Source: Chryseobacterium turcicum
GTDB taxonomy: Bacteria > Bacteroidota > Bacteroidia > Flavobacteriales > Weeksellaceae
DNA: 64,000 nucleotides
Reading direction: 5' to 3'
Assembly (NCBI RefSeq): GCF_021010565.1
Contig: NZ_JAJNAY010000001.1
Coordinates: 1,034,001 to 1,098,000, forward strand
The notes beneath the pieces are model-generated. The model was not told the DNA's origin. It did no database searches and saw only the letters and a list, made by a program, of their open reading frames with translations. Below, one piece after another: positions 1 to 51,676 of the stretch; the first letter of the stretch is position 1; the number at the start of each line of letters is the position of its first letter. The position numbers and the translations under genes are program-made.

Positions 1-1058
1 GAACACCATTATCAGGGTCATTTTTTTTAGAATCGATATTGGATGAAAAATCGATGTTTGAGCGCCATTCTAGAGGATTAGACCAAAGCGTGCTTTTCTT
101 TTTCGACCGAATAGAAGCGGTCATTCTTTGGTAGTTTTCAAAATTATCGGTAGGGTCGGCTTTAGAGTCTAAAAAATCTGCTCCTGCACTTATTTGCCAG
201 TTTTCATTGATTTTAAATCCTTTCCCTACGTAATATTGCTTGCTGAAACCGTCTGCTTTAAATCTTGCCTGCAAAGGAGATTCTCCAATTTTTCTTTCAA
301 TTTTTATCACTCCGGAAGTTAAATCTCCATATGATGCAGAAGGAATTCCTCGGATGATTTCTACTTTTTCGATATCATTGGTTGAGATGGTTCTCATATC
401 AACTCCGGTGGTTGCAGTTTCTCTTGCTTCAGGTGAATAACCAAATTGTGATTTATCCAAAGAAACCTGCATATCTGCATTAGAGTTGATTACATTTCCG
501 TCAATCATGAATTGAGTTCCCAGAGCACTCGTGTTGTATTCTGTGGTTCTGTATGAAAGATTGCCTCTGTTTTCACGAAGGGCAGGTCTGTTGTTAACGC
601 TTAAATTCGGGGTTTTTGCCAATCCACCCGGTAAAAGCTCCATCAAATCTGTAAAGCTTGAGGGTTGCAAATGTTCCATCGCTTTTCGGTCGATGATGGT
701 TTTTGTTACTAAGCCCTTACCTTCTTTAGAAAAAATAACGATTTCTTCAAGTTTATCTACAGGCTGAAGCTGAAAATTAAGTGTTTTTGAATTGTTTAAA
801 GTAACATCAAACTCTTTTTCCTGATAATTGGTGTGAATGATTTTTATGTGATGCTTCCCTTCGCTTAAAACTAGTGTCGCATGACCATTTTCATCGGTAG
901 TCGCTGAGGTTTGAGAACTTTTTATAGAAACACCTTTTAGTTTTTGTTGGTTTTCACCCGAAATACTAATGTTTAATTGTAATTTCTCGTTTTGAGCTAA
1001 TAAAAGTTGAGAGCCCGAGAAAAAAAGTAGTATAAATGTTAAAAGCCTGATCGTCATT
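1..1058 (-). CDS. TonB-dependent outer-membrane receptor (partial, N-terminal part)
   Basis: Reading leftwards from an ATG at 1058 the frame stays open to the window edge, so the C-terminal beta-barrel lies outside. The protein starts with a signal peptide (MTIRLLTFILLFFSGSQLLL). Next comes a carboxypeptidase-like beta-sandwich (about residues 25-105), then a plug domain with the typical run EKVEIIRGIPSASYGDLTSG. This layout is that of TonB-dependent receptors, which import large nutrients or metal chelates across the outer membrane using TonB energy. The substrate cannot be told from this part. It lies 125 bp downstream of murB on the same strand. Family call is firm; specificity unknown. 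Confidence 0.93.
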
Positions 1059-1183
1059 ATTTTAGTTTATCGAAAGCAAAATCGACCGCAAAAATATGAA
1101 TTAAATCAGCGGATATGAAATTTATTTAGAACAAATTAAAATAACTGATAAATGTCAGATGAAAAATATGAAAGAATGAGGGT

Positions 1184-2197
1184 TTAAAGAATATTGACTT
1201 CTCGCTCTAGTTCAATCCCGAATTTTTCTTTTACGGAATCAATAATTAGGGTTGAAAAATCAAAAATTTCTTTTCCAGTCGCATTTCCTGTGGCATTAAT
1301 AATTACTAAAGACTGTAATTGATGAGACGCTACATTTTCGATTTGTTTTCCTTTCCAGCCACATTGTTCGATGAGCCAGCCAGCAGGAACTTTTACAAAA
1401 TTTCCGTTCGGATATCCTTGAATGTTTTCAAATTTTAATTTTAAATCTTCAAACTGTGCTAAAGGAATGGTAGGGTTTTTAAAAAAACTTCCTGCATTAC
1501 CAATCTTTTTAGGGTCTGGAAGTTTGCTTTGTCTGATGTTAATTACTGCTTTTGAAACATCCTGAATTGTTGGGTTGGTAATATTTAAATTTTCCAATTC
1601 AGATTGTATAGCACCGTATTCGGTTTTGATGGTATGGTTTTGAGTGGTTAATGTAAAACTTACTTCCAAAATCACATATTGGTTTTTTCCTTCCTGCTTA
1701 AAAATAGAATCTCTGTACCCGAATCTGCATTTTTCTAAATCAAAAGTTTCTACTTCCAATGTTTGTAGGTTTAAAACTTTACAACTTACAAAATGGTCTT
1801 TTATTTCCGTTCCGTAAGCTCCGATATTCTGCATCGGTGAAGTTCCTACATTTCCGGGAATTAAAGAAAGATTTTCAAGTCCGCCATAATTTTTGCTCAG
1901 GCAATACATCACAAATTCGTGCCAGTTTTCTCCTGCTTTTGAGGTTACTAAAACTTCGTTATCATTTAAAAATTCTTCAGAAATTCCTTTTAAGTTTAAT
2001 TTTATCGCTAGGCCTTCAAAATCTTTAGTAAACAAAATATTGCTGCCGCCACCTAAGAATAGAAGTGGGAGAGCTTGAGAGTTTGAGGGTTTGAGGGTTT
2101 CTATTAATTCTTCTACAGAATTTACCTCAACGAAATATTTTGCGTTGGCTTCTACACCAAAAGTATTAAAAGGTTTTAATGAAAAATTTTCCAGCAT
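1184..2197 (-). CDS. murB: UDP-N-acetylmuramate dehydrogenase MurB
   Basis: A 337-residue flavoenzyme that reduces UDP-GlcNAc-enolpyruvate to UDP-MurNAc with NADPH, the second committed step of peptidoglycan precursor synthesis in the cytoplasm. The FAD-binding stretch LGGGSNIL (48-55) is visible, followed by LIPGNVGTSPMQNIGAYG (112-129) and the catalytic serine in NAGSFFKNP (Ser237), as in the E. coli-type (type I) enzyme. Length is normal for that type. Residues about 36-44 (KPSNSQALP) are encoded by a repetitive CAAACTCT-like stretch that also occurs elsewhere in the window, so they look like an insertion in a surface loop. It follows a lipoprotein gene by 35 bp. Confidence 0.96.
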   Translation of the reverse strand: MLENFSLKPFNTFGVEANAKYFVEVNSVEELIETLKPSNSQALPLLFLGGGSNILFTKDFEGLAIKLNLKGISEEFLNDNEVLVTSKAGENWHEFVMYCLSKNYGGLENLSLIPGNVGTSPMQNIGAYGTEIKDHFVSCKVLNLQTLEVETFDLEKCRFGYRDSIFKQEGKNQYVILEVSFTLTTQNHTIKTEYGAIQSELENLNITNPTIQDVSKAVINIRQSKLPDPKKIGNAGSFFKNPTIPLAQFEDLKLKFENIQGYPNGNFVKVPAGWLIEQCGWKGKQIENVASHQLQSLVIINATGNATGKEIFDFSTLIIDSVKEKFGIELEREVNIL

Positions 2198-41056: not shown

Positions 41057-41989
41057 TTAAAGTTTCGCTAAATCTTCAGCATATCTTCCCATGATAGGAT
41101 ATGCTTTTCCGTCTTTTATAGTGTAATATTTTTCAGGAAATCTGTTTTTTATAAATTGAGCCATGTGTTCATCAGATAAATTTTCAGGTAAATCGAAACT
41201 TACCGACTTATCAAAAATTATTTTGTCATATAAATTTTTTTCAGATTTATCATAACTGCTTCTGTACGTCTCGACAGGAGTTGCCCATCTTCCATCTTTT
41301 GTTTTATAAACAGGATAAAATTTATACCTTTTATGAATCAATTCACCACAGCTTTCTTCTACAAAAAGCAACACATTTGCATTATAATTTTCAAACAAGA
41401 ACCGATGTGAAAAATCATGGTCATACGCAGTAAATGTTATTGTAGAATCTGGAAAATGGTCGCCAAATTCCTGCTCAATTTTGTAAGTGGCATCATATTT
41501 AGAATCCATCGGCATATAGCAATAATCTGATGTATCTACATATGATATATCTATTTTTTCGCCAACAAATACATATGATTTTGATGGGATTTTCTGTTCG
41601 CATTCCTTGGGGGTGATGCAAGGTTTAGATTCAAGTTCTATAACGAGTTTCTTTTTATTCATCAAGTCTGAGACTGCGTATTTTTTAGGATAGTACAATC
41701 TTGGATTATTTTTAAAAAACAATGTATCACCCAATTTTGCATTGATTGAAAAATATCCAGTATTATCAGTGCATTTGAAAACATCTTTATTCGCTGTTAC
41801 CTTATTTCTTATGATAACATCTTTTACTCCTAATTTATCAAGCTTATTAATAGTATCATTTAAGATAATACAGCTAATTGCCCATCCGTTTTTATCCGGA
41901 AGCTTTATAAATCCTTCTATTTTAACTTTTTGTGCATTCAATAGAAAGGGTACAAAACAAATTATAAAATAAATTAAAGTTTTTTTCAT
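41057..41989 (-). CDS. Secreted protein of unknown function at the end of the cassette locus
   Basis: The 310-residue product has a signal peptide (ends LLNAQ) and then a beta-sandwich-like stretch with NTGYFSINAKLGDTLFFKNN, similar to carboxypeptidase-regulatory-like domains of Bacteroidetes. The rest has no motif I know; an acidic His-containing piece (FTAYDHDFSHRFLF) is noted. It starts 11 bp after the DUF6705 gene and is the last gene of the minus-strand cassette locus. Confidence 0.7.
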   Translation of the reverse strand: MKKTLIYFIICFVPFLLNAQKVKIEGFIKLPDKNGWAISCIILNDTINKLDKLGVKDVIIRNKVTANKDVFKCTDNTGYFSINAKLGDTLFFKNNPRLYYPKKYAVSDLMNKKKLVIELESKPCITPKECEQKIPSKSYVFVGEKIDISYVDTSDYCYMPMDSKYDATYKIEQEFGDHFPDSTITFTAYDHDFSHRFLFENYNANVLLFVEESCGELIHKRYKFYPVYKTKDGRWATPVETYRSSYDKSEKNLYDKIIFDKSVSFDLPENLSDEHMAQFIKNRFPEKYYTIKDGKAYPIMGRYAEDLAKL

Positions 41990-42000
41990 GATTGTGTTTT

Positions 42001-42567
42001 TTATTGCTTGGTAAATATCAAATCTTTTGTTATCGGAAGATAAACTTTTTTATCTACACTTGGTGGGCAGGTTGCATCATCTATTACTAAATTATTCGGA
42101 CGATAATCCCAAGAGAATTGCGTTGTATTGAGTTTTTTTAGGATTATTTTTCCCCAACCAATACCACAATTGGTACCATCATAACCTAATGAGACAATTC
42201 CTAATGATGGTATTGTTCCTATACTTACAATATTAAAATACGTTTGATCATTCAAAATCATATTTTGAGTATTCTGTAAAATATTTCCTGCTGAATTTTT
42301 CACAATATATTTAACCACTAATGCATCTCTATAAAAATCTTTATTCATTCGCCTTGTAGGCTTATTTTCTTCTTTATTGATAATTAAAATAATTTCATTT
42401 CCTTGATAATTTGTCTTATACGTACCTACATAAGAATTTAATTCATTATTCGTATCTTTTATATATCCATTTGCTGGAATATCTTTCATTAAAGTATTTA
42501 AAGGAAGTTGTTGTGCCTTGCAAGAAAGTACAACAAACAATCCATAAAATATTATTATACTTTTCAT
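42001..42567 (-). CDS. DUF6705-type lipoprotein (paralogue 1)
   Basis: The 188-residue product has a signal with lipobox LSC followed by KAQ (Cys16), then a beta-rich domain. Shared landmarks with its neighbour are NTNNELNSYVGTYKTNYQGN, TQNMILNDQTYFNIVSIGT, GTNCGIGWGKIILKKLNTTQ and a C-terminal DLIFTKQ. It overlaps the upstream paralogue by one base (TAATG). I take it as part of the cassette locus: each cassette C-terminal domain is followed by such a gene, so an immunity or binding-partner role is inferred. Confidence 0.8.
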   Translation of the reverse strand: MKSIIIFYGLFVVLSCKAQQLPLNTLMKDIPANGYIKDTNNELNSYVGTYKTNYQGNEIILIINKEENKPTRRMNKDFYRDALVVKYIVKNSAGNILQNTQNMILNDQTYFNIVSIGTIPSLGIVSLGYDGTNCGIGWGKIILKKLNTTQFSWDYRPNNLVIDDATCPPSVDKKVYLPITKDLIFTKQ

Positions 42568-43148
42568 TATTGCTTGGTAAATATCAAATCCTTTGTTACA
42601 GGAAGATAAACCGTTTTATCTGTACTTGGGGGACAGGTGGCAGAATCTATCATCAGACTATTTGGGCGGTATTCCCAAGTGATTTGAGTTGTATTGAGTT
42701 TTTTTAGTATTATTTTTCCCCAACCAATACCACAATTCGTACCCTCATAGTAAAATATTACAGTTCCTGATATTGGTCTAGTTCCCATACTTACAATATT
42801 AAAAAAAGTTTGGTTATTCAAAATCATATTTTGGGTGTCCTGAAGAATCACACCAGACGGATTTTTTACAATGTACTTTATTATTAAAGCATCAGTGTAA
42901 TAATTTTTATTCGTACTTTTTTCTAACTTGTCTTCTACCTTCGTTATATATAAGTAAATGTCGTTTCCTTGAAAATTAGTTTTATAATTTCCTACATAGG
43001 TTAAAAGTTCATTATTTAAATCTTTTAAATGTGCATTTGCAGGAATATCATCAAGAGGTGTGTTCAAAGGAAGAATTTGTGCTTTACAAGAAATTACACA
43101 TGTAATTATAAATAGTATAACAGATGTTTTAAAAAAAAATGTTTTCAT
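42567..43148 (-). CDS. DUF6705-type lipoprotein (paralogue 2)
   Basis: A 193-residue close relative of the downstream gene, with a lipobox VISC then KAQ and the same core (GNYKTNFQGNDIYLYI, GTNCGIGWGKIILKKLNTTQ, DLIFTKQ). It starts 14 bp after the stop of cassette A and ends in a TAATG overlap with paralogue 1. Two copies after one cassette suggest a local duplication. Confidence 0.82.
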   Translation of the reverse strand: MKTFFFKTSVILFIITCVISCKAQILPLNTPLDDIPANAHLKDLNNELLTYVGNYKTNFQGNDIYLYITKVEDKLEKSTNKNYYTDALIIKYIVKNPSGVILQDTQNMILNNQTFFNIVSMGTRPISGTVIFYYEGTNCGIGWGKIILKKLNTTQITWEYRPNSLMIDSATCPPSTDKTVYLPVTKDLIFTKQ

Positions 43149-43161
43149 AATATATTTAATT

Positions 43162-43944
43162 TTAAGGGCATGGTGTTGCTGTTGGCTGATTATTATTGTC
43201 TAGTGTTATATTTTGTATTATTCCTTCATTATCAACTCTTTGTAGATTAACTTTTCCATCCATATTCATACCTTTAAGAGTGTCAAAAAAAAGTTTTTCT
43301 AATCCTTTTTGATTAAGTGATTTTCCATCATTATCTGTATAAGCACTATTATTTGATAAACTATTTTCTCTTTTTTGGTAATCTTTGCTCAAAGCGACTT
43401 TATCCCAAGTCGTTTGAAATAAATACTTCTCAAGTTCCTGTGATGTTCCATTAAATCGAATAATATAATTATGATATTTATAGCCATCGGGGCAGGTGCT
43501 GCATTCTTCAGAGCCAAACATTCCGAAAAAAGCATCGCCAAAATCTCCGTTGGGCTGTGCTAATGCGTAATTTAGCAATTTTAAAGAAAGCATTTTTATT
43601 CCGGTAGGGGTATGATTATGATATCCTCCTTGCCATCCTGCTTCACTTCCCAGATCTACTTGGTGTTCTCCTCCATTAATAATACTAGAAGTAGTGCCGT
43701 CAGCTTTTATATTAAACCCTTTTTCACCACCAATTTTAGATTGTGCTTTAAGAGTTTCTACTTTCTCCATCACAGCAGGATCTTCCAGTAAAGCTTTTGT
43801 TTTCGCACAAGGGTTTTGCGGTGGCTCAGGATATTCAAAGCCTGTATCTCCGCCGCCGCTGCCATCACCGTTGGGGTCGCCAATAGGGTTTAGTCCTTTA
43901 GGTGGGGTGCCTGTGGTTTTCCATTCGCAGATTTATTGGCTAGA
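43162..43944 (-). pseudogene. Silent cassette A: linker plus JAMM-like C-terminal domain
   Basis: Reading from 43944 the frame matches the linker of the intact gene at 49155-50477: SSQ-stop-ICEWKTTGTPP, then GLNPIGDPNGDGSGGGDTGF. It continues into a different C-terminal domain (GEKGFNIKADGTTSSIINGG, GGYHNHTPTGIKMLS, ending PTATPCP). There is a stop codon in the linker (CAA to TAA) and no start codon or lipoprotein N-terminus, so it cannot be expressed alone as a lipoprotein. An internal ATG at 43773 opens only the C-terminal part. The HNH...S pattern resembles a JAMM site but the Asp is not evident. Confidence 0.8.
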
Positions 43945-43971
43945 AAACACTTTTTTTACGGATTATAACAA

Positions 43972-44000
43972 TAAATAAAAACCTGCAATTGCAGGCTTTT
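43972..44000 (-). terminator. Terminator before cassette A
   Basis: CCTGCAATTGCAGG, a perfect 14-nt palindrome with flanking AAA/TTT, sits between the DUF6705 pseudogene and the linker of cassette A. Copies lie at 45376 and 46757. Confidence 0.8.
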
Positions 44001-44002
44001 AT

Positions 44003-44574
44003 TTATTGTTTTGTTAATACAATTTCTTTCGGCAAAGCCTCAGGGAAAGGCACAGTATTATAATAAGGACACTCGTCAGTAATCATATTACTACCTAAAT
44101 ATAAATTCCAGTTTAGTTTAGTTTAGTTTAGTTTAGTTTAGTTTTCGTGGAATCTGTAAAACTAATTCTTATATTTCCGGAGGTAAAACACAAATCTGGA
44201 TCAACATAGCTAAGAGAATATTTATCATCTACTTTTCTGAATTTCCCCCCTCATATCTTTGCTTTATCATCTGATATATTTGTGTTATCGAAAAGTATAT
44301 TACCATTACTATCTAATACTTTAAATTTTCCAATTAAATTATCTTTATAGTATTTCAATACATTATCATAGATATAGGAATTCTTTTTAAAAGTAATAAA
44401 GATAGTTCTATTATTCCACGTTCCTTTCCATACACCCTCATAGCCTTGAAGTTCATTATTAGTATCTTTTAAGTAGGTGTTTTCAGGTATCTCTGTAAAT
44501 GTTCTTAAAGGATATGTTTGTGCTGTACAGGCAATTGCTGAGCTGAGTAATATAATTAAAAGTATATTTTTCAT
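44003..44574 (-). pseudogene. Broken DUF6705-type lipoprotein gene with expanded microsatellite
   Basis: It is a near-identical copy of the intact gene at 45407-45958. A TGG codon has become TGA (near 44249), ending the frame after SDDKAKI. Further on, the pentanucleotide TTTAG (plus strand) is present six times at 44111-44140 against two in the intact copy; the extra 20 bases shift the frame. The N-terminal lipobox signal (IACTAQ) is intact, so a truncated 107-residue lipoprotein might still be made. Confidence 0.85.
44111..44145. repeat. Pentanucleotide microsatellite (GTTTA)6
   Basis: Six GTTTA units run from 44111 to 44140. The matching site in the tandem copy (near 45516) has two units and the paralogue near 46898 also has two. 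The tract is inside coding sequence and not a multiple of three, so its length decides the frame. Confidence 0.9.
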
Positions 44575-44580
44575 AAGTTT

Positions 44581-45348
44581 TCAAATTAAAATATTATTAT
44601 GGACATGGTATAGAGTGTACAGGATTGTCTTTTCCGTTGTATTCAAGTTTATACTTGGGTTTCCGGTAGTTTTATCGATTTTATAAACCTCCAAACCGCT
44701 TATATTGATCGTTTCTTTTAAAAACTGTGTAAAAATTTTTTCTATATTTTCTTGTGTTAACTTATTGTTTTCAATGAGTTCTAAATACTTTCTATCATAT
44801 GACTCTTTCCAAGTACTATACTGACCAGCCAAAGTGTATCCTCCGTTACCCGAGTATTTCAGCATATAATTTCCCTGAGATGTTATTACCATAGCATAAG
44901 CATCGCTCATATTTCCTTTTTCTTTGGCATTTCTTACGCATTTGAGAAGAAAGGTATGTACATCGGCAGGTGAAAATATTTTTATTGCTCCTTCTTTATC
45001 AAGGTGGACGTGGATATACGCAAAATATTTATTTCCTTCCGGCATTTTTAGTTTATCATCAGTGATAATTTTAAGACGTTCATAATTGGTTTGGGGTCCA
45101 TATGCCGCTGCAAAGCCTGTTTCTGTATTCTTTTGAAAAATAGAATCATGATCCAGCTCAGAAACCTTATCCTTATACCCTTGGTCTGTTTTCTGTGCTT
45201 TTATTTTCTCGCAAGGGTTTTGCGGTGGCTCAGGATATTCAAAGCCTGTATCTCCGCCGCCGCTGCCATCACCGTTGGGGTCGCCAATAGGGTTTAGTCC
45301 TTTAGGTGGGGTGCCAGAAGTTTTCCATTCGCAGATTTGTTGGCTAGA
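44581..45348 (-). pseudogene. Silent cassette B: linker plus JAMM-like C-terminal domain
   Basis: The frame from 45348 reads the linker (SSQQICEWKTSGTPPKGLNP, then the Gly/Pro run to NPCEK) and a C-terminal domain with FAYIHVHLDKEGAIKIFSPA and DVHTF, a JAMM-like HxH...SxxD. There is no start codon: a stop lies just upstream of SSQQ. Near the end a one-base deletion changes the expected NGKDNPVHSIPCP ending to NTTEKTILYTLYHVHNNILI. It is almost identical to cassette C and shares that deletion. Confidence 0.82.
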
Positions 45349-45375
45349 AAATACTTTTTTTACGGATTATAACAA

Positions 45376-45404
45376 TAAATAAAAACCTGCAATTGCAGGC
45401 TTTT
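45376..45404 (-). terminator. Terminator before cassette B
   Basis: Copy of the CCTGCAATTGCAGG hairpin with A/T-rich flanks, between the intact DUF6705 gene and the cassette B linker. Confidence 0.8.
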
Positions 45405-45406
45405 AT

Positions 45407-45958
45407 TTATTGTTTTGTTAATACAATTTCTTTCGGCAAAGCCTCAGGGAAAGGCACAGTATTATAATAAGGACACTCGTCAGTAATCATATTACTACCT
45501 AAATATAAATTCCAGTTTAGTTTAGTTTTCGTGGAATCTGTAAAACTAATTCTTATATTTCCGGAGGTAAAACACAAATCTGGATCAACATAGCTAAGAG
45601 AATATTTATCATCTACTTTTCTGAATTTCCCCCCCCATATCTTTGCTTTATCATCTGATATATTTGTGTTATCGAAAAGTATATTACCATTACTATCTAA
45701 TACTTTAAATTTTCCAATTAAATTATCTTTATAGTATTTCAATACATTATCATAGATATAGTAATTCTTTTTAAAAGTAATAAAGATAGTTCTATTATTC
45801 CACGTTCCTTTCCATACACCCTCATAGCCTTGAAGTTCATTATTAGTATCTTTTAAGTAGGTGTTTTCAGGTATCTCTGTAAATGTTCTTAAAGGATATG
45901 TTTGTGCTGTACAGGCAATTGCTGAGCTGAGTAATATAATTAAAAGTATATTTTTCAT
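45407..45958 (-). CDS. DUF6705-type lipoprotein (intact copy paired with cassette C)
   Basis: The 183-residue protein has a signal with lipobox IACTAQ (Cys16), then ENTYLKDTNNELQGYEGVWK, a beta-rich core and the C-terminal EIVLTKQ. It starts 7 bp after cassette C. The broken copy at 44003-44574 arose by duplication of this unit. Placement right after a toxin-like domain suggests it is the cognate partner or immunity protein; the lipid anchor would put it in the envelope. Confidence 0.8.
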   Translation of the reverse strand: MKNILLIILLSSAIACTAQTYPLRTFTEIPENTYLKDTNNELQGYEGVWKGTWNNRTIFITFKKNYYIYDNVLKYYKDNLIGKFKVLDSNGNILFDNTNISDDKAKIWGGKFRKVDDKYSLSYVDPDLCFTSGNIRISFTDSTKTKLNWNLYLGSNMITDECPYYNTVPFPEALPKEIVLTKQ

Positions 45959-45964
45959 AAGTTT

Positions 45965-46732
45965 TCAAATTAAAATATTATTATGGACATGGTATAGAGT
46001 GTACAGGATTGTCTTTTCCGTTGTATTCAAGTTTATACTTGGGTTTCCGGTAGTTTTATCGATTTTATAAACCTCCAAACCGCTTATATTGATCGTTTCT
46101 TTTAAAAACTGTGTAAAAATTTTTTCTATATTTTCTTGTGTTAACTTATTGTTTTCAATGAGTTCTAAATACTTTCTATCATATGACTCTTTCCAAGTAC
46201 TATACTGACCAGCCAAAGTGTATCCTCCGTTACCCGAGTATTTCAGCATATAATTTCCCTGAGATGTTATTACCATAGCATAAGCATCGCTCATATTTCC
46301 TTTTTCTTTGGCATTTCTTACGCATTTGAGAAGAAAGGTATGTACATCGGCAGGTGAAAATATTTTTATTGCTCCTTCTTTATCAAGGTGGACGTGGATA
46401 TACGCAAAATATTTATTTCCTTCCGGCATTTTTAGTTTATCATCAGTGATAATTTTAAGACGTTCATAATTGGTTTGGGGTCCATATGCCGCTGCAAAGC
46501 CTGTTTCTGTATTCTTTTGAAAAATAGAATCATGATCCAGCTCAGAAACCTTATCCTTATACCCTTGGTCTGTTTTCTGTGCTTTTATTTTCTCGCAAGG
46601 GTTTTGCGGTGGCTCAGGATATTCAAAGCCTGTATCTCCGCCGCCGCTGCCATCACCGTTGGGGTCTCCAATAGGGTTTAGTCCTTTAGGTGGGGTGCCA
46701 GAAGTTTTCCATTCGCAGATTTGTTGGCTAGA
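45965..46732 (-). pseudogene. Silent cassette C: linker plus JAMM-like C-terminal domain
   Basis: Same content as cassette B: linker from SSQQICEWK, Gly/Pro/Asp-rich spacer, then the HVH...FSPAD domain and the same frameshifted end. The open frame extends to a TTG at 46774, but this lies in the preceding terminator region and gives an implausible N-terminus, so I treat the cassette as start-less and silent. The unit B plus its neighbours and this unit are spaced exactly 1384 bp apart. Confidence 0.82.
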
Positions 46733-46756
46733 AAATACTTTTTTATGGATTATAAT

Positions 46757-46785
46757 GATAGATAAAACCTGCAATTGCAGGTTTT
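46757..46785 (-). terminator. Terminator before cassette C
   Basis: CCTGCAATTGCAGG hairpin flanked by AAAA and TTTTT, third copy of this terminator. Confidence 0.8.
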
Positions 46786-46788
46786 TAT

Positions 46789-47340
46789 TTATTGTTTTGT
46801 TAATAGAATTTCTTTCGGCAAAGCCTCAGGGAAAGGTACAGTATTATAATAAGGACACTCGTCAGTAATCATATTACTATCTAAATATAAATTCCAGTTT
46901 AGTTTAGTTTTTGTGGAATCTGTAAAGTTAATTCTTATATTACCGGAGGTAAAGCACAGATCATTATCAATGTATATTAATGAATATTTATCATCAGTTT
47001 TTCGAAACCCACTTCCATAGATTTTTGCTTTATCATCAGTTAAATTTGTATTATCAAATAGAAGATTTCCATTACTATCTAATACTTTAAATTTTCCGAT
47101 TAAATAATCTCTATAATATTTAAAATGCTGATCATATTTATTAGTAATTTTTTTGAAATTAATAAAAATTGTTTTATTACCCCAAACCCCTTTCCATATT
47201 CCTTCATAGGCAGGAAGTTCATTGCTTATGTCTTTTTCATAAGCATTTTCAGGAATATCTGTAAAGGTTCTTAAAGAATAAATTTGTGCTGTACAAGAAA
47301 TAGTTGTATTAAGTAATATAATTAAAAATATGTTTTTCAT
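46789..47340 (-). CDS. DUF6705-type lipoprotein (paralogue paired with remnant D)
   Basis: The 183-residue lipoprotein (lipobox ISCTAQ, Cys16) is clearly related to the 45407-45958 product but more diverged (for example TDIPENAYEKDISNELPAYE). The end EILLTKQ is shared. It starts 21 bp after the remnant of a fourth cassette (47361-47548), keeping the rule that each cassette end is followed by one of these genes. Confidence 0.8.
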   Translation of the reverse strand: MKNIFLIILLNTTISCTAQIYSLRTFTDIPENAYEKDISNELPAYEGIWKGVWGNKTIFINFKKITNKYDQHFKYYRDYLIGKFKVLDSNGNLLFDNTNLTDDKAKIYGSGFRKTDDKYSLIYIDNDLCFTSGNIRINFTDSTKTKLNWNLYLDSNMITDECPYYNTVPFPEALPKEILLTKQ

Positions 47341-47360
47341 AATGATAATAATTTATTAAA

Positions 47361-47548
47361 TTAAGGGCAGGGTGTCAATTTTATTGGATTATTTTTCCCA
47401 TCATATTCAAACTTAATTGCTTGTCCTGAAGTTTTGTCAACTTTATATAATTCTAAACCGTTTATATTAACTGTTTCTTTTAAAAATTGTGTAAATAATT
47501 TTTCTACATTAGATTGAGCCATTTGGTCATTTTTTAATAATTTATCAT
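47361..47548 (-). pseudogene. Remnant D: 3' end of a lost cassette
   Basis: Without a start, the frame reads EYDKLLKNDQMAQSNVEKLF, then TQFLKETVNINGLELYKVDK and ends in NPIKLTPCP-stop at 47361. It aligns with the last 60 residues of cassettes B and C and shows what their ending was before the frameshift. The front of this cassette, including the linker, is gone. Confidence 0.8.
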
Positions 47549-47602
47549 ACTCTTACATGAAATTGCAATGACTGAAAGTAGTATTAAAAATATATATTTC
47601 AT
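47534..47602 (-). pseudogene. Lipoprotein leader fused to remnant D
   Basis: An ATG at 47602 opens MKYIFLILLSVIAISCKSMI then NY and stop: the signal peptide and lipobox of a DUF6705-type gene running out of frame into remnant D. This marks a deletion junction between a partner-gene start and a cassette end. Confidence 0.7.
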
Positions 47603-47615
47603 AAGTTTAATTTTT

Positions 47616-47712
47616 TTAATTACAGTTAGTTGAACTTACCACAGCATTGGGAGTGTTGGATGCTATTTCGAGTTTACTAAATCCGGTTAAATTACTTCTT
47701 TTACATATTAAA
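47616..47712 (-). pseudogene. Stub of the 49155-type C-terminal domain (copy 2)
   Basis: Encodes SNLTGFSKLEIASNTPNAVV then SSTNCN-stop, the same last residues as the intact gene at 49155. Nothing of the upstream domain is left. Confidence 0.8.
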
Positions 47713-47716
47713 CAAT

Positions 47717-47757
47717 AAATAAAAACATCTGCCTCAAATTGGTGCAGATGTTTTTAT
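47717..47757 (-). terminator. Terminator after the 47761 gene
   Basis: Stem AAAAACATCTGC / GCAGATGTTTTT just after the stop codon, T-run on the minus strand. Confidence 0.85.
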
Positions 47758-47760
47758 TTA

Positions 47761-48378
47761 TTATTTAATCATTATAAACTCGCCTAAAGGTAATGAAAAG
47801 TCTTCAGGTGGACTTTCTGTGTCTACATTATAAGAAACGGTATTTACGTTGTTAATTTTTACCTGCATCACTTGTTGTCCGTTTATTACTGTTCTGCGCA
47901 TCAATATATTTGCGTATCTGTCAGTTACTCTATCTCTAATTCTTAAAACTGCCCTTTTTTCATTTGGGTTACACTGTGGGCATTTCCATAGTCTATTATT
48001 AATATTAGATATAATTGAATTTCCTGCAATTCCGTGTTTTAAAAATTGATCAGAATAGCTGATATTTAAATTTGAAAGTGTATTTATTTTCTCTACACCA
48101 TTTTTTATATATTGATATTCTCCAATAATCAAGTCTTCGAAATGTAATCCTACGTTTTGTTTTATTTTCTTTTCTAACACTATTTTAAAGCTAGTGTTTC
48201 CGCTGGTATATAAATACGTTCCTTGAAATAGTTCTAAGAGGCTATTCAAATCTTTTTTATAATAATCAGAGTAAGTATTATTCCAAGTGGAATATGTTGT
48301 ATCATCTATGTCAATTATGGTTTGTGACTTTACAGTAGTTGATAATAGTAGAATCAGTATTAGATATATATATATCAT
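47761..48378 (-). CDS. Secreted cassette-partner protein (second family, copy 2)
   Basis: The 205-residue protein has a signal peptide ending VKSQ and a beta-rich domain. It shares with its upstream paralogue NSLLELFQGTYLYTSGNTSF-type start, the CPQC pair in LWKCPQCNPNEKRA, and a nearly identical C-terminal half (NILMRRTVINGQQVMQVKIN, then SLPLGEFIMIK). The NxLLxxFxGTY start recalls DUF6705 (NELNSYVGTY), so both may be one broad family. It follows a stub of a C-terminal domain by 14 bp. Confidence 0.78.
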   Translation of the reverse strand: MIYIYLILILLLSTTVKSQTIIDIDDTTYSTWNNTYSDYYKKDLNSLLELFQGTYLYTSGNTSFKIVLEKKIKQNVGLHFEDLIIGEYQYIKNGVEKINTLSNLNISYSDQFLKHGIAGNSIISNINNRLWKCPQCNPNEKRAVLRIRDRVTDRYANILMRRTVINGQQVMQVKINNVNTVSYNVDTESPPEDFSLPLGEFIMIK

Positions 48379-48391
48379 AAGTTTAATTTTT

Positions 48392-48485
48392 TTAATTACA
48401 GTTAGTTGAGCTTACCACAGCATTTGGAGTGTTGGATGCTATTTCGAGTTTACTAAATCCGGTTAAATTACTTCTTTTACATATT
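48392..48485 (-). pseudogene. Stub of the 49155-type C-terminal domain (copy 1)
   Basis: Same residue content as the stub at 47616 (NLTGFSKLEIASNTPNAVV and stop). It sits 14 bp upstream of the 47761-48378 gene, exactly as the intact C-terminal domain sits before the 48533-49141 gene. Confidence 0.8.
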
Positions 48486-48493
48486 AAATTTTA

Positions 48494-48530
48494 ATAAAAA
48501 CATCTGCCTCAAATTGGGGCAGATGTTTTT
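48494..48530 (-). terminator. Terminator after the 48533 gene
   Basis: Stem AAAAACATCTGCC / GGCAGATGTTTTT just after the stop codon with a T-rich tail on the minus strand. Confidence 0.88.
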
Positions 48531-48532
48531 AT

Positions 48533-49141
48533 TTATTGTTTAATCATTATAAACTCGCCTAAAGGTAATGAAAAGTCTGCTGGTGGACTTTCTGTGTCTA
48601 CATTATAAGAAACGGTATTTACGTTGTTAATTTTTACCTGTATCACTTGTTGTCCGTTTATTACTGTCCTTCGCATCAATATATTTGCATATCTATTTGT
48701 TAATTTATCTGTAATCGTTAGGTCTGCTCTTTTTTCATTTGGCTTGCATTGTGGACATTTCCAAAGTCGAGAATTATTCCAGAGAATACCATTTCCTGCT
48801 ATGTTATGTTTTAAATACTGATCAGAATACATAATGTTTAAATTAGATAAAGTATTGACTTTTTCTATACCATTTTCCATATATTGATATTCACCAATAA
48901 TTAAATCTTCATAATGAGAGTCAACAGGTTGCTTAATCATTTTTTGCAATACTATTTTAAAGGTGGAAGTTCCATTCGTATAAATATAAGTACCTTCAAA
49001 TGGGTTTAATAAATTATTAAAATCTTTTTGGTAATAGCCATTAGGCTTTCCAAAACCAGGTTCTTCAATATCAATTGTTACGCTTTGAGACTTTAACTCC
49101 GCCGAAAATATTAAAATAAATAAAAAGAATATATTTTTCAT
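48533..49141 (-). CDS. Secreted cassette-partner protein (second family, copy 1)
   Basis: The 202-residue product has a signal peptide ending LKSQ and a beta-rich domain with NNLLNPFEGTYIYTNGTSTF, a CPQC pair (LWKCPQCKPNEKRAD) and the C-terminal SLPLGEFIMIKQ. It begins 14 bp after the intact lipoprotein gene and is thus the partner of the currently expressed C-terminal domain. Copy 2 downstream is highly similar at its end. Immunity or binding-partner role is inferred from position. Confidence 0.8.
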   Translation of the reverse strand: MKNIFFLFILIFSAELKSQSVTIDIEEPGFGKPNGYYQKDFNNLLNPFEGTYIYTNGTSTFKIVLQKMIKQPVDSHYEDLIIGEYQYMENGIEKVNTLSNLNIMYSDQYLKHNIAGNGILWNNSRLWKCPQCKPNEKRADLTITDKLTNRYANILMRRTVINGQQVIQVKINNVNTVSYNVDTESPPADFSLPLGEFIMIKQ

Positions 49142-49154
49142 AAGTTTAATTTTT

Positions 49155-50477
49155 TTAATTACAGTTAGTTGAACTTACTACAGCATTGGGAGTGTTGGAT
49201 GCTATTTCGAGTTTACTAAATCCGGTTAAATTACTGTTTGCTTTATATAAGCCAATATTTGTTCCGAAATTTAATTGAAGAAAAGCGCTTTCATAATTTG
49301 GAGAACTTTTTTTAGCTTCAGCTTTATATTGTTCACCCAATTTTTCATCCATTCTTTTTATTATCTCCTGATGAGTACATCCAATATTATCAGGATTATT
49401 AAAAATGTCTTCCATATAAGTTCCAATATCTTCAAACATGATCATATAGGTTTGTTTTACTCCATTATCATCTTCGCATACCAATATAAAACTAGATTGT
49501 CCGTTATTGTATGTCGCAGCATTCATTTCTAATCCATATAATACATAGATATCTGCCCAGGTAAACATTGGATAAGTGTCTTTGGGATGGGTATGTATGG
49601 CAGCATAATAAGCACCGCCTGTCATTATTTTAATATTATTAGTCGCAGTGGATGGTGCAATTACTAGAGTAATATTTCCAACTGCATCTTTTTTCAGCCA
49701 TACTCCTGCTTCTCCAGAACTACTGTTATTGATATAATCGTACATACCACCAGTAATAAGAGGTTTGATATTAGCTTTGGTGGGATCTATCAATGCATTA
49801 GCTTTCTCGCAAGGGTTTTGCGGTGGCTCAGGATATTCAAAGCCTGTATCTCCGCCGCCGCTGCCATCACCGTTGGGGTCGCCAATAGGGTTTAGTCCTT
49901 TAGGTGGGGTGCCTGTGTTTTTCCATTCGCAGATTTGTTGGCTAGAAGTCATTGGCTCACAGCCGGGATGATGGTCGTCACAGCCTACAGTAAAGATGCG
50001 CGTAAAACAAATGTAAGACATAGCCTTGGCAGAAAAATCGCCCACCTCACTGCTATACTCCTCTGTCTTGATAATAGGTGAATAGATAGCATGCTGAAAA
50101 AAAGCTAAAAGCTCAGGGTCTTTTTTTTCGTAAAAGTATACCTTGTTGCCTTCTCTTACGGTTTCCATTAAAATAATTACTCTGTTTTTTTTCACGATCG
50201 GTACCAATGCATATTTTTCTCCATACTGGCCAAAAGACATCGCATAATCCCAATAAAGCTCACCATACGTCTCATTGAAGCGTGGGAGATTGGCATGTTT
50301 CAGGAAGACCTGCTGTGTTTTTTTAATGTACATCTGGTCTTCATTCCAAGGAGATTTAGAGACGTATTCTGTGTTTGAAGGGGCAGAAGCAGTGTACACT
50401 TCATCGTGAATACAGGAGTTGAAAGATAGCAAAGCTATCATCATCAGACAAAGTCTGAAAAATAAACTTTTCTTCAT
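49155..50477 (-). CDS. Complete polymorphic lipoprotein with JAMM-like C-terminal domain
   Basis: The 440-residue protein starts with a signal and lipobox (FNSC, Cys22). Residues 25-175 form a conserved-looking N-terminal region; 178-224 are the linker SSQQICEWK...NPIGDPNGDGSGGGD...PPQNPCEK; 225-440 are the variable C-terminal domain. That domain has AAIHTHPKDTYPMFTWADIY with His295, His297, Thr306 and Asp309, close to the JAMM HxHx7SxxD metal site. Only this copy has a start codon and N-terminal half; cassettes A-C carry linker-homologous DNA with other C-terminal domains. It is most likely an envelope lipoprotein whose tip can be exchanged; toxin, peptidase and antigen roles are all possible. 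Confidence 0.85.
   Translation of the reverse strand: MKKSLFFRLCLMMIALLSFNSCIHDEVYTASAPSNTEYVSKSPWNEDQMYIKKTQQVFLKHANLPRFNETYGELYWDYAMSFGQYGEKYALVPIVKKNRVIILMETVREGNKVYFYEKKDPELLAFFQHAIYSPIIKTEEYSSEVGDFSAKAMSYICFTRIFTVGCDDHHPGCEPMTSSQQICEWKNTGTPPKGLNPIGDPNGDGSGGGDTGFEYPEPPQNPCEKANALIDPTKANIKPLITGGMYDYINNSSSGEAGVWLKKDAVGNITLVIAPSTATNNIKIMTGGAYYAAIHTHPKDTYPMFTWADIYVLYGLEMNAATYNNGQSSFILVCEDDNGVKQTYMIMFEDIGTYMEDIFNNPDNIGCTHQEIIKRMDEKLGEQYKAEAKKSSPNYESAFLQLNFGTNIGLYKANSNLTGFSKLEIASNTPNAVVSSTNCN
49806..49946 (-). repeat. Linker repeat (shared by the intact gene and three cassettes)
   Basis: About 140 bp coding for the SSQQICEWK...NPC linker recur at 43805-43944, 45208-45348 and 46592-46732 with only a few differences. 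This is far more conserved than the domains that follow and can serve as homology for recombination. Confidence 0.9.
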
Positions 50478-50707: not shown

Positions 50708-50872
50708 TTCCCCGAAAACCTCCTGCACGCAGCAGCGGGTTTTCAATATCCTCCGAAAGTCTCCTGCAGTGTGCAGCGTACTTCCGGAGAACTCCGAAAC
50801 CTTCCTGCAGCCTGCGGGAGACTTTCGGAAGATCCCGAAATTAATTTTCAGCCCCTCCTGGAACTTTCGGGT
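50708..50872. repeat. Block of GC-rich hairpins upstream of the DUF6261 gene
   Basis: The block stands out as GC-rich in AT-rich surroundings. GAAAACCTCCTGC / GCAGCGGGTTTTC (50714-50744), TCCGAAAGTCTCCTGCAG (50752-50769) with CTGCGGGAGACTTTCGGA (50812-50829; one mismatch), and CCCGAAA / TTTCGGG (50834-50871) are nested inverted repeats with the recurring core CCGAAA...CTGCAG...TTTCGG. Short open frames through it on the plus strand are not gene-like. The remainder of the gap 50478-50929 shows no gene. Confidence 0.85.
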
Positions 50873-50929: not shown

Positions 50930-51676
50930 ATGATGAATTCCATCGATTTACCAAAACTTCGGAATGCAGAATACCTGCAGTACATGAAAGATTTTTCAAG
51001 TATCATTAATCTCAACAACGCTGGGCAGTTTGATATTGAGACAAAATTGAATGCCTTTACGACCAAAATAGGAGAGCTTGAGGCGCTTTACAAAAAGGCC
51101 CTTGCCAGTGAAAAAACTCAGGCGGTTCTTGCACTCGACGAGAGAAGAGATGCGGCAATGAACGGGATTAATTATTTTCTGCTTTCTCAGACTTATCATT
51201 TTCAAACCGAAAACCGAAAAAATGCCCAATTGCTTCTGGATAGTATCAATATGTATGGAAGCAGTATTGCAAGGCTCAATTATCAGGCAGAAACTGCTAC
51301 CCTCAATAATCTTATCCGCGACTGGGAAAACAAACCCGAGCTTACAAATGCCCTCATGGCATTTAACCTTTTATCATGGGTCAATGAAATGAAAGCTGCC
51401 AATGATGAGTTTAATACACAATATCTTTCGCGCACTCAGGAATACGGTGATGCCAATCCGGAAACCATTAAAATCAAAAGAGAAGAAGTGAATCTTGCTT
51501 ATTATGCACTGAGAAACAGAATCGATGCACTGCATCTTTTGGTAGAGACACCGCCGTCACCATATGTTACAGTAATCAATCAGCTCAATGCATTGACAGA
51601 CCAGTATAACGTATTGCTGTTTAACAGAAAACCAGACTTGCCAGATTCTATAAATCCTGAAGAGCAGACTAAATAA
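50930..51676 (+). CDS. DUF6261 family protein
   Basis: The 248-residue protein is helical and soluble (DLPKLRNAEYLQYMKDFSSI, ALDERRDAAMNGINYFLLSQ, KREEVNLAYYALRNRIDALH). I recognise it as a Bacteroidetes DUF6261 member; no function is known. The first two codons are both ATG (50930 and 50933). It is preceded by the GC-rich hairpin block and followed by its own terminator, so it forms an isolated unit. Confidence 0.82.
   Translation: MMNSIDLPKLRNAEYLQYMKDFSSIINLNNAGQFDIETKLNAFTTKIGELEALYKKALASEKTQAVLALDERRDAAMNGINYFLLSQTYHFQTENRKNAQLLLDSINMYGSSIARLNYQAETATLNNLIRDWENKPELTNALMAFNLLSWVNEMKAANDEFNTQYLSRTQEYGDANPETIKIKREEVNLAYYALRNRIDALHLLVETPPSPYVTVINQLNALTDQYNVLLFNRKPDLPDSINPEEQTK

What the first reader, a model, noticed from the sequence alone, without database searches (positions are those of the whole stretch)
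42001..50477. Exchangeable C-terminal cassettes behind one expressed lipoprotein gene
One complete lipoprotein gene (49155-50477) shares a strongly conserved linker of about 140 bp with three downstream start-less cassettes (43162-43944, 44581-45348, 45965-46732). Beyond the linker each carries a C-terminal domain (B and C near-identical, A and the intact gene different), then one or two small secreted or lipid-anchored genes, and mostly a terminator. This matches the logic of polymorphic toxin or antigen loci: recombination through the linker would swap the tip together with its partner gene. The JAMM-like tips with DUF6705-type partners are, to my knowledge, not a described system.
Basis: partly seen in the sequence, partly recalled or inferred. 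Interest (0 to 1): 0.92.

Follow-up and report, generated by a model that had tools for sequence, protein, structure and literature searches.

The report
Swappable surface-lipoprotein tips with cognate partners
Bacteria of one genus carry an anchored envelope protein whose enzyme-like tip has repeatedly been swapped together with its own matching partner gene, which looks like an unnamed family of bacterial toxin-and-antidote weapons, with leftover old tips still lying behind the active gene.

Summary
One intact lipoprotein gene and three start-less cassettes share a 141-nt linker (4-5 differences from the intact copy) with sharp edges; the tips behind it differ. Sixty related loci show what it is: a tip + partner module exchanged behind conserved lipoprotein backbones. 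Tip and adjacent DUF6705 partner co-vary (rho 0.66); backbone and tip do not (0.05). At three orthologous sites flanks and backbone match at 89-96% up to the tip and again past the partner, while the block between is replaced. Tips keep E/HxH/S/D and model like JAMM/MPN domains. Backbones carry a surface-export motif, partners do not.

Best reading: a polymorphic toxin-immunity system on surface lipoproteins. Toxicity is inferred, not shown. In this window all three cassette tips are damaged (stop plus lost JAMM Asp; frame change), whereas six of seven partner genes are intact, so the cassettes look like displaced remnants, not a working stock. The array logic recurs on other backbones. Closest known: Tox-JAB-1/Imm65, SitA, orphan Rhs. 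No held paper names DUF6705. New variant of a known kind.

The parts
49155..50477 (-). Intact lipoprotein gene (440 aa): signal peptide with lipobox Cys22 followed by I-H-D-E (surface-export-like motif), constant N-terminal domain, linker, JAMM-like tip
49803..49943 (-). Linker in the intact gene (SQQICEWK...PPQNPCEK), 53% G+C
49155..49802 (-). Tip of the intact gene; E256, H295, H297, D309 invariant in the 72 sequences of alignment A2 (HEVAH-type relatives were left out of it); JAMM/MPN-like model
48533..49141 (-). Partner of the intact tip, DUF6705 (E 5.9e-35), signal peptide by eye, predicted small beta-barrel
48395..48478 (-). Copy of the last 28 codons of the intact tip (93%), upstream of a second partner gene: tandem duplicate of tip end + partner
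47761..48378 (-). Second DUF6705 partner, 70% identical to the first
47619..47702 (-). Third copy of the last 28 codons of the intact tip, followed by a truncated partner start
47364..47552 (-). Remnant: last ~63 residues of a B-type tip
46789..47340 (-). DUF6705 partner behind the lost B-type tip
46589..46729 (-). Linker copy of cassette B
45965..46732 (-). Cassette B: linker + tip without start or signal peptide; JAMM motif kept, C-terminal end out of the frame of relatives
45407..45958 (-). DUF6705 partner of cassette B, intact
45205..45345 (-). Linker copy of cassette C
44581..45348 (-). Cassette C: near-duplicate of B with the same C-terminal frame change
44251..44574 (-). DUF6705 partner of cassette C, broken (internal stops)
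43801..43941 (-). Linker copy of cassette A, with an in-frame stop at its third codon
43162..43944 (-). Cassette A: linker + tip; H-N-H present but the residues around the JAMM Asp are missing
42567..43148 (-). DUF6705 partner behind cassette A, lipobox SCKAQ by eye
42001..42567 (-). Second DUF6705 partner behind cassette A
41057..41989 (-). 310-aa gene (signal peptide by eye) at the end of the array; homologs lie directly behind a partner gene in 2 of 80 related loci (L114, L124)
50930..51676 (+). DUF6261 gene, divergently adjacent; 18 of its 28 homologs with 60% identity or more in the genus also lie divergently beside such a lipoprotein gene

Best explanation
A polymorphic toxin-immunity system built on surface lipoproteins. 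A constant lipoprotein half is exported, anchored in the outer membrane and (inferred from its export motif) turned to the outside; it carries a JAMM/MPN-type metallo-hydrolase tip. The gene directly behind encodes an exported beta-barrel DUF6705 protein that stays on the periplasmic side (inferred) and neutralises that tip (inferred). Tip and partner are exchanged as one block, with the 5' crossover at the linker/tip boundary; a crossover that inserts rather than replaces leaves the old linker-tip-partner cassette behind the new one (inferred). Unused tips decay while partner genes are kept. Shown here: modularity, co-inheritance of tip and adjacent partner, exchange at orthologous sites, purifying selection, motif, and a predicted fold. 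Inferred: toxicity, neutralisation, surface display and delivery to neighbours.
For: 61 genes with backbone and tip in one frame, from 58 of 60 fetched loci plus the window (in L087 and L090 the halves lie in different frames and were dropped): 59 have a DUF6705-type gene 10-89 nt behind. On these 59, identity correlations: tip-partner 0.66, backbone-tip 0.05, backbone-partner 0.03; partial Mantel tip-partner given backbone p = 0.001. All 43 pairs with tips >=70% have partners >=55%, though 24 have backbones <50%. In 25 genes with two partners the tip follows the adjacent one (0.69) more than the second (0.27). Orthologous-site swaps L079/L080, L084/L091, L100/L106; the reverse case L079/L100 shares +687..1918, tip + partner, at 94% and no upstream DNA. 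Tips on other backbones: 29 of 29 have the partner. dN/dS 0.05-0.16 for tips, 0-0.17 for partners in 8 pairs. JAMM residues invariant in 72, MPN-fold matches fill the list. Surface-export motif in 52 of 61 backbones by pattern and 7 more by eye, 0 of 78 partners with a lipobox, 15 of 109 background ORFs. Window: 1 of 4 linker-bearing tips intact against 6 of 7 partner genes.
Confidence: 0.74

Rival explanations
1. A surface metallo-peptidase with a dedicated periplasmic chaperone or inhibitor that acts on the cell's own surface or on food polymers; tips vary by substrate, not for conflict.
For: Purifying selection on tips, surface-export motif, mostly unlike upstream neighbours from locus to locus.
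Against: Strings of extra partner genes behind one tip (25 of 61 genes), partners kept while tips decay, and tip-specific pairing fit immunity better than a general chaperone.
Confidence: 0.14
2. Surface antigen variation: silent cassettes are a store from which the displayed tip is renewed by recombination within the genome.
For: One full gene, several N-less copies with a near-identical linker; orphan Rhs fragments with 95% identity over 522 bp do recombine with the main gene in passaged cultures (PMC3967940, passages). In L183 and L185 the downstream tips cover the full tip profile in one frame, so a store is not excluded there.
Against: All three cassettes in the window are damaged; dN/dS is far below 1; partners co-vary with tips, which antigens do not need; 54 of 61 genes have no other linker copy in the fetched stretch, and only 3 (window, L095, L113) have an N-less one.
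Confidence: 0.07
3. Neutral debris: tandem duplication and decay of one horizontally acquired gene cluster, without current function.
For: Stops, frame change, truncated copies and tandem repeats in the window; the site is empty in 20 of 20 relatives examined.
Against: The front gene and six partner genes are intact; relatives are under purifying selection; 178 of 320 family genomes match the profile.
Confidence: 0.05

Closest known systems
Tox-JAB-1 / Imm65 (Zhang et al. 2012, PMC3482391, passages read)
   Same: JAB-fold toxin tip, Bacteroidetes, immunity protein with signal peptide and lipobox, cassette organisation
   Different: Tox-JAB-1 sits behind RHS repeats; Pfam PF15659 matches none of the 72 and 46 scanned tip proteins (two shared) at E <= 0.1; profile comparison with 8 PF15659 proteins gives probability 4; six genes following PF15659 toxins align with DUF6705 only in the signal peptide
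SitA/SitI lipoprotein toxins of myxobacteria (PMC5562445, passages read)
   Same: Lipoprotein backbone, related N-terminus with unrelated C-termini, immunity gene behind
   Different: SitA moves by TraA-dependent outer membrane exchange and its tips are typically nuclease-like; no relation of the N-termini was tested
Orphan Rhs and CDI modules (PMC3967940, passages read; PMC4927057, search listing only)
   Same: Start-less toxin fragment + immunity gene behind a full gene, sharing a ~95% identical stretch that can recombine
   Different: Rhs/CdiA carriers; there the orphan toxin is functional, here the three cassettes are damaged
TANFOR polymorphic toxins (PMC7073777, passages read)
   Same: Bacteroidetes, constant N-terminus, variable C-terminal toxins, immunity behind
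   Different: Large proteins proposed as T9SS cargo; the word lipoprotein does not occur in the held text
BSAP antibacterial proteins (PMC12853789, passages read)
   Same: Surface lipoproteins with a lipoprotein export signal used against other bacteria
   Different: MACPF pore formers

Membership tests
Polymorphic toxin systems (sensu Zhang et al. 2012) | Constant N-terminal part with exchangeable C-terminal tips | tested here: met
   18 of 22 pairs with N >=80% have tips <40%; DNA breakpoints at the tip start
Polymorphic toxin systems (sensu Zhang et al. 2012) | Cognate gene directly behind the tip, moving with it | tested here: met
   59 of 61, 29 of 29 on other backbones; rho 0.66
Polymorphic toxin systems (sensu Zhang et al. 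2012) | Stand-alone tip-immunity cassettes and strings of immunity genes | tested here: met
   Window, L095, L113, L183, L185; 25 of 61 genes with two or more partners
Polymorphic toxin systems (sensu Zhang et al. 2012) | Tip is toxic and the partner neutralises it | not testable with these tools
   needs expression assays
JAMM/MPN (JAB) metallo-hydrolase fold | Glu, HxH, Ser/Thr, Asp motif | tested here: met
   E256, H295, H297, D309 invariant and S306 in at least 90% of 72 sequences (window has Thr); HEVAH-type relatives left out
JAMM/MPN (JAB) metallo-hydrolase fold | Fold | tested here: met
Tox-JAB-1 (PF15659) | Match to the family profile | tested here: not met
   no match at E <= 0.1 among 72 and 46 proteins
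Tox-JAB-2 (PF14220, DUF4329) | Match to the family profile | tested here: inconclusive
   2 of 72 weak matches, best E 0.0026; none of 46; one relative is named DUF4329 by a source (P0041)
DUF6705 (PF20448) | Match above the curated cut-off | tested here: met
   all six intact partners of the window; 79 of 86 aligned partners match at E <= 0.1
SitA | Delivery by TraA/TraB outer membrane exchange | not tested
   TraA was not searched for in this genome
Surface-exposed Bacteroidota lipoproteins (LES, PMC5080379) | C-X-K/polar-(D/E)2 after the lipobox Cys | tested here: met
   52 of 61 by pattern, 7 more by eye, the other two frames lack the N-terminus; 0 of 78 partners with a lipobox; 15 of 109 background ORFs. 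Exposure itself not tested
Rhs-type orphan module | Orphan tip intact and able to fuse to the main gene | tested here: not met
   all three window tips damaged

The most novel reading that the evidence does not exclude
A large, unnamed class of contact- or vesicle-borne antibacterial weapons in Flavobacteriales: surface lipoproteins of about seven backbone types that share one pool of JAMM-type metallo-hydrolase tips and DUF6705 beta-barrel antidotes, exchanged as blocks between species. A JAMM enzyme acting in a competitor's envelope, blocked by a periplasmic antidote, would be a new toxin chemistry; the DUF6261 gene may be an accessory for part of the class. (Odds lowered from 0.42 when the DUF6261 link fell from 17 of 20 to 18 of 28.)
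Probability: 0.4. Interest if true: 0.78.

Novelty: new variant of a known kind. Interest (0 to 1): 0.62.

Why it matters
It gives a function hypothesis to a Pfam family of unknown function (DUF6705 as antidote), and to lipoproteins that public sources call hypothetical; the profile matches in 178 of 320 family genomes searched. It offers a natural 2x2 experiment: two backbones and two modules found in all four combinations (L079, L080, L100, L106). It also raises a direct chemical question: what a JAMM-type enzyme on the cell surface cleaves, since most bacteria with JAB toxins lack ubiquitin-like conjugation (PMC3482391, passage).
Full report
What is in the sequence. On the minus strand of window 42001-50477 lies one intact lipoprotein gene (49155-50477, 440 aa) and behind it a string of start-less tip cassettes and DUF6705 genes. 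The intact gene and cassettes B, C and A share a 141-nt linker; the cassettes differ from the intact copy at 5, 4 and 4 positions. In blastn the match is 145-156 nt at 95-97% and stops at both edges. The linkers have 53% G+C, the tips 33-34%, the partners about 29%. The N-terminal half gives one match in the genome, and seven of the eight DUF6705 matches in the genome are in this locus. The organism is taken to be Chryseobacterium, because contigs of genomes that the tool calls same genus have the lengths and coordinates of named Chryseobacterium records.

State of the parts. The intact gene is whole. Cassette A has a stop at the third linker codon and, aligned with seven relatives, lacks the residues around the JAMM aspartate. 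Cassettes B and C keep the motif, but their last ~20 codons are out of the frame in which relatives L130 and L085 match. Between them lie two copies of the last 28 codons of the intact tip, a truncated partner start and the last ~63 residues of a B-type tip. Of seven longer partner genes six are intact and one is broken. So the antidote-like genes outlast the tips.

Comparative set. A search with the N-terminal half + linker found 23 proteins. Their profile A1 (24 rows) matched 178 of 320 genomes of the family (at most five candidates were scored per genome, so a lower bound; many matches cover the tip only). I fetched 60 stretches around the best matches with an N-terminal half. This choice favours full-length genes with JAB tips. 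In 58 of them and the window, 61 genes had both halves in one frame (L087 and L090 dropped; L107 and L123 have two genes each); 59 of 61 had a DUF6705-type gene 10-89 nt behind. The exceptions are L088, whose tip has a HEVAH motif instead, and the first of the two genes of L107.

Tip and partner form one module. On the 59 genes with a partner, pairwise identities correlate at 0.66 for tip-partner, 0.05 for backbone-tip and 0.03 for backbone-partner; the partial Mantel test for tip-partner given the backbone has p = 0.001. Of 22 pairs with backbones at least 80% identical, 18 have tips under 40% and 4 at least 70%; all 43 pairs with tips at least 70% have partners at least 55%, and 24 of them have backbones under 50%. 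In the 25 genes with a second partner further on, the tip follows the first (0.69) more than the second (0.27; not zero, p = 0.003); in that subset backbone and first partner also correlate at 0.38.

Exchange seen in DNA. L080 (coordinates of C. cucumeris GSE06) and L079 (C. aquifrigidense 110; names) share the same site: 92.6% identity from -1977 to +691, where the tip starts at +684, no match across tip and partner, then 89.7% over 4.8 kb. L100/L106 and L084/L091 behave alike. Conversely L079 and L100, whose backbones are 31% identical, match from +687 to +1918 at 94% and not upstream. L080 and L106 share the other module at 84%. A further syntenic pair, L081/L083, keeps the same tip (all). 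Thus two backbones and two modules occur in all four combinations. In L136/L127 the tip has dS 0.09 against 1.64 for the backbone.

Generality. Twenty further loci were chosen by hand among the tip-only matches. All 29 tips scoring at least 80 bits have the partner within 150 nt. Where enough N-terminal sequence was present, these backbones fall into six groups (three of them single) with no blastp link at E 1e-5 to each other or to the window's type. L183 and L185 hold cassettes in shorter frames (271-356 aa) that repeat the front gene's linker at 82-96%, with tips mostly 25-31% identical (one pair in each array is 84-90%). Arrays of linker-tip-partner cassettes thus recur on a different backbone. 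On the window's backbone they are rare: window, L095 and L113 of 61 genes.

Selection. In eight close pairs dN/dS is 0.05-0.16 for tips and 0-0.17 for partners: conserved proteins, not diversifying antigens.

How the array forms (inference). If incoming DNA with linker, tip and partner enters by one crossover in the linker, the new tip is placed behind the N-terminal half and the old linker-tip-partner unit is pushed downstream, start-less. The oldest units should then lie furthest and be most decayed; A is furthest and most damaged. B/C (a 1.38-kb tandem unit) and the repeated tip ends show further unequal exchange. Zhang et al. 2012 propose that strings of immunity genes are remnants of former tip replacements (PMC3482391, passages). 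Orphan Rhs fragments with 95% identity over 522 bp recombine with the main gene (PMC3967940, passages).

Site. In the 20 genomes with the best matches to gene 38902 the interval between trigger factor and gene 52082 lacks the array; two of them have a full DUF6261 gene there. The array is an acquired, or elsewhere lost, island. The DUF6261 gene has a looser link to these systems: of its 28 homologs with at least 60% identity in 173 genus genomes, 18 lie divergently beside such a lipoprotein gene (17 of 20, 1 of 8); the rate is high among the closest homologs and nil among the most distant six.

What is known. DUF6705 appears in no paper of the held library. A search for Chryseobacterium with polymorphic toxin gave 11 papers, of which I saw only the listing; two further searches for JAMM toxins and lipoprotein toxins led to the papers named here, the rest seen as listings. 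JAB toxins with a lipoprotein antidote (Tox-JAB-1/Imm65) are known; they are not this family by profile. I file this as a new variant of polymorphic toxin systems, with toxicity untested.

Noticed in passing
window 50930-51676: DUF6261 gene of unknown function is divergently adjacent to JAB-tip lipoprotein genes in 18 of its 28 closest homologs in the genus.
   Followed up: yes
window 41057-41989; L114:12417-13397; L124:6398-7330: A 310-aa protein with no Pfam match sits behind partner genes in three loci, perhaps another antidote or accessory.
   Followed up: partly
L088 (tip as in P0007): Same backbone and linker with a HEVAH-type tip, followed by a different 269-aa gene and then a DUF6705-type gene: tip class and adjacent partner class change together.
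   Followed up: partly
L081, L083, L091, L092, L099, L100, L106, L119: Eight loci, with backbones from different subgroups, share a related upstream gene (about 224 aa in L081), suggesting a common insertion site.
   Followed up: no
window 50722-50840: Imperfect inverted repeats upstream of the intact gene.
   Followed up: no
window 44100-44130: Short TAAAC repeat expansion inside the broken partner gene of cassette C.
   Followed up: no
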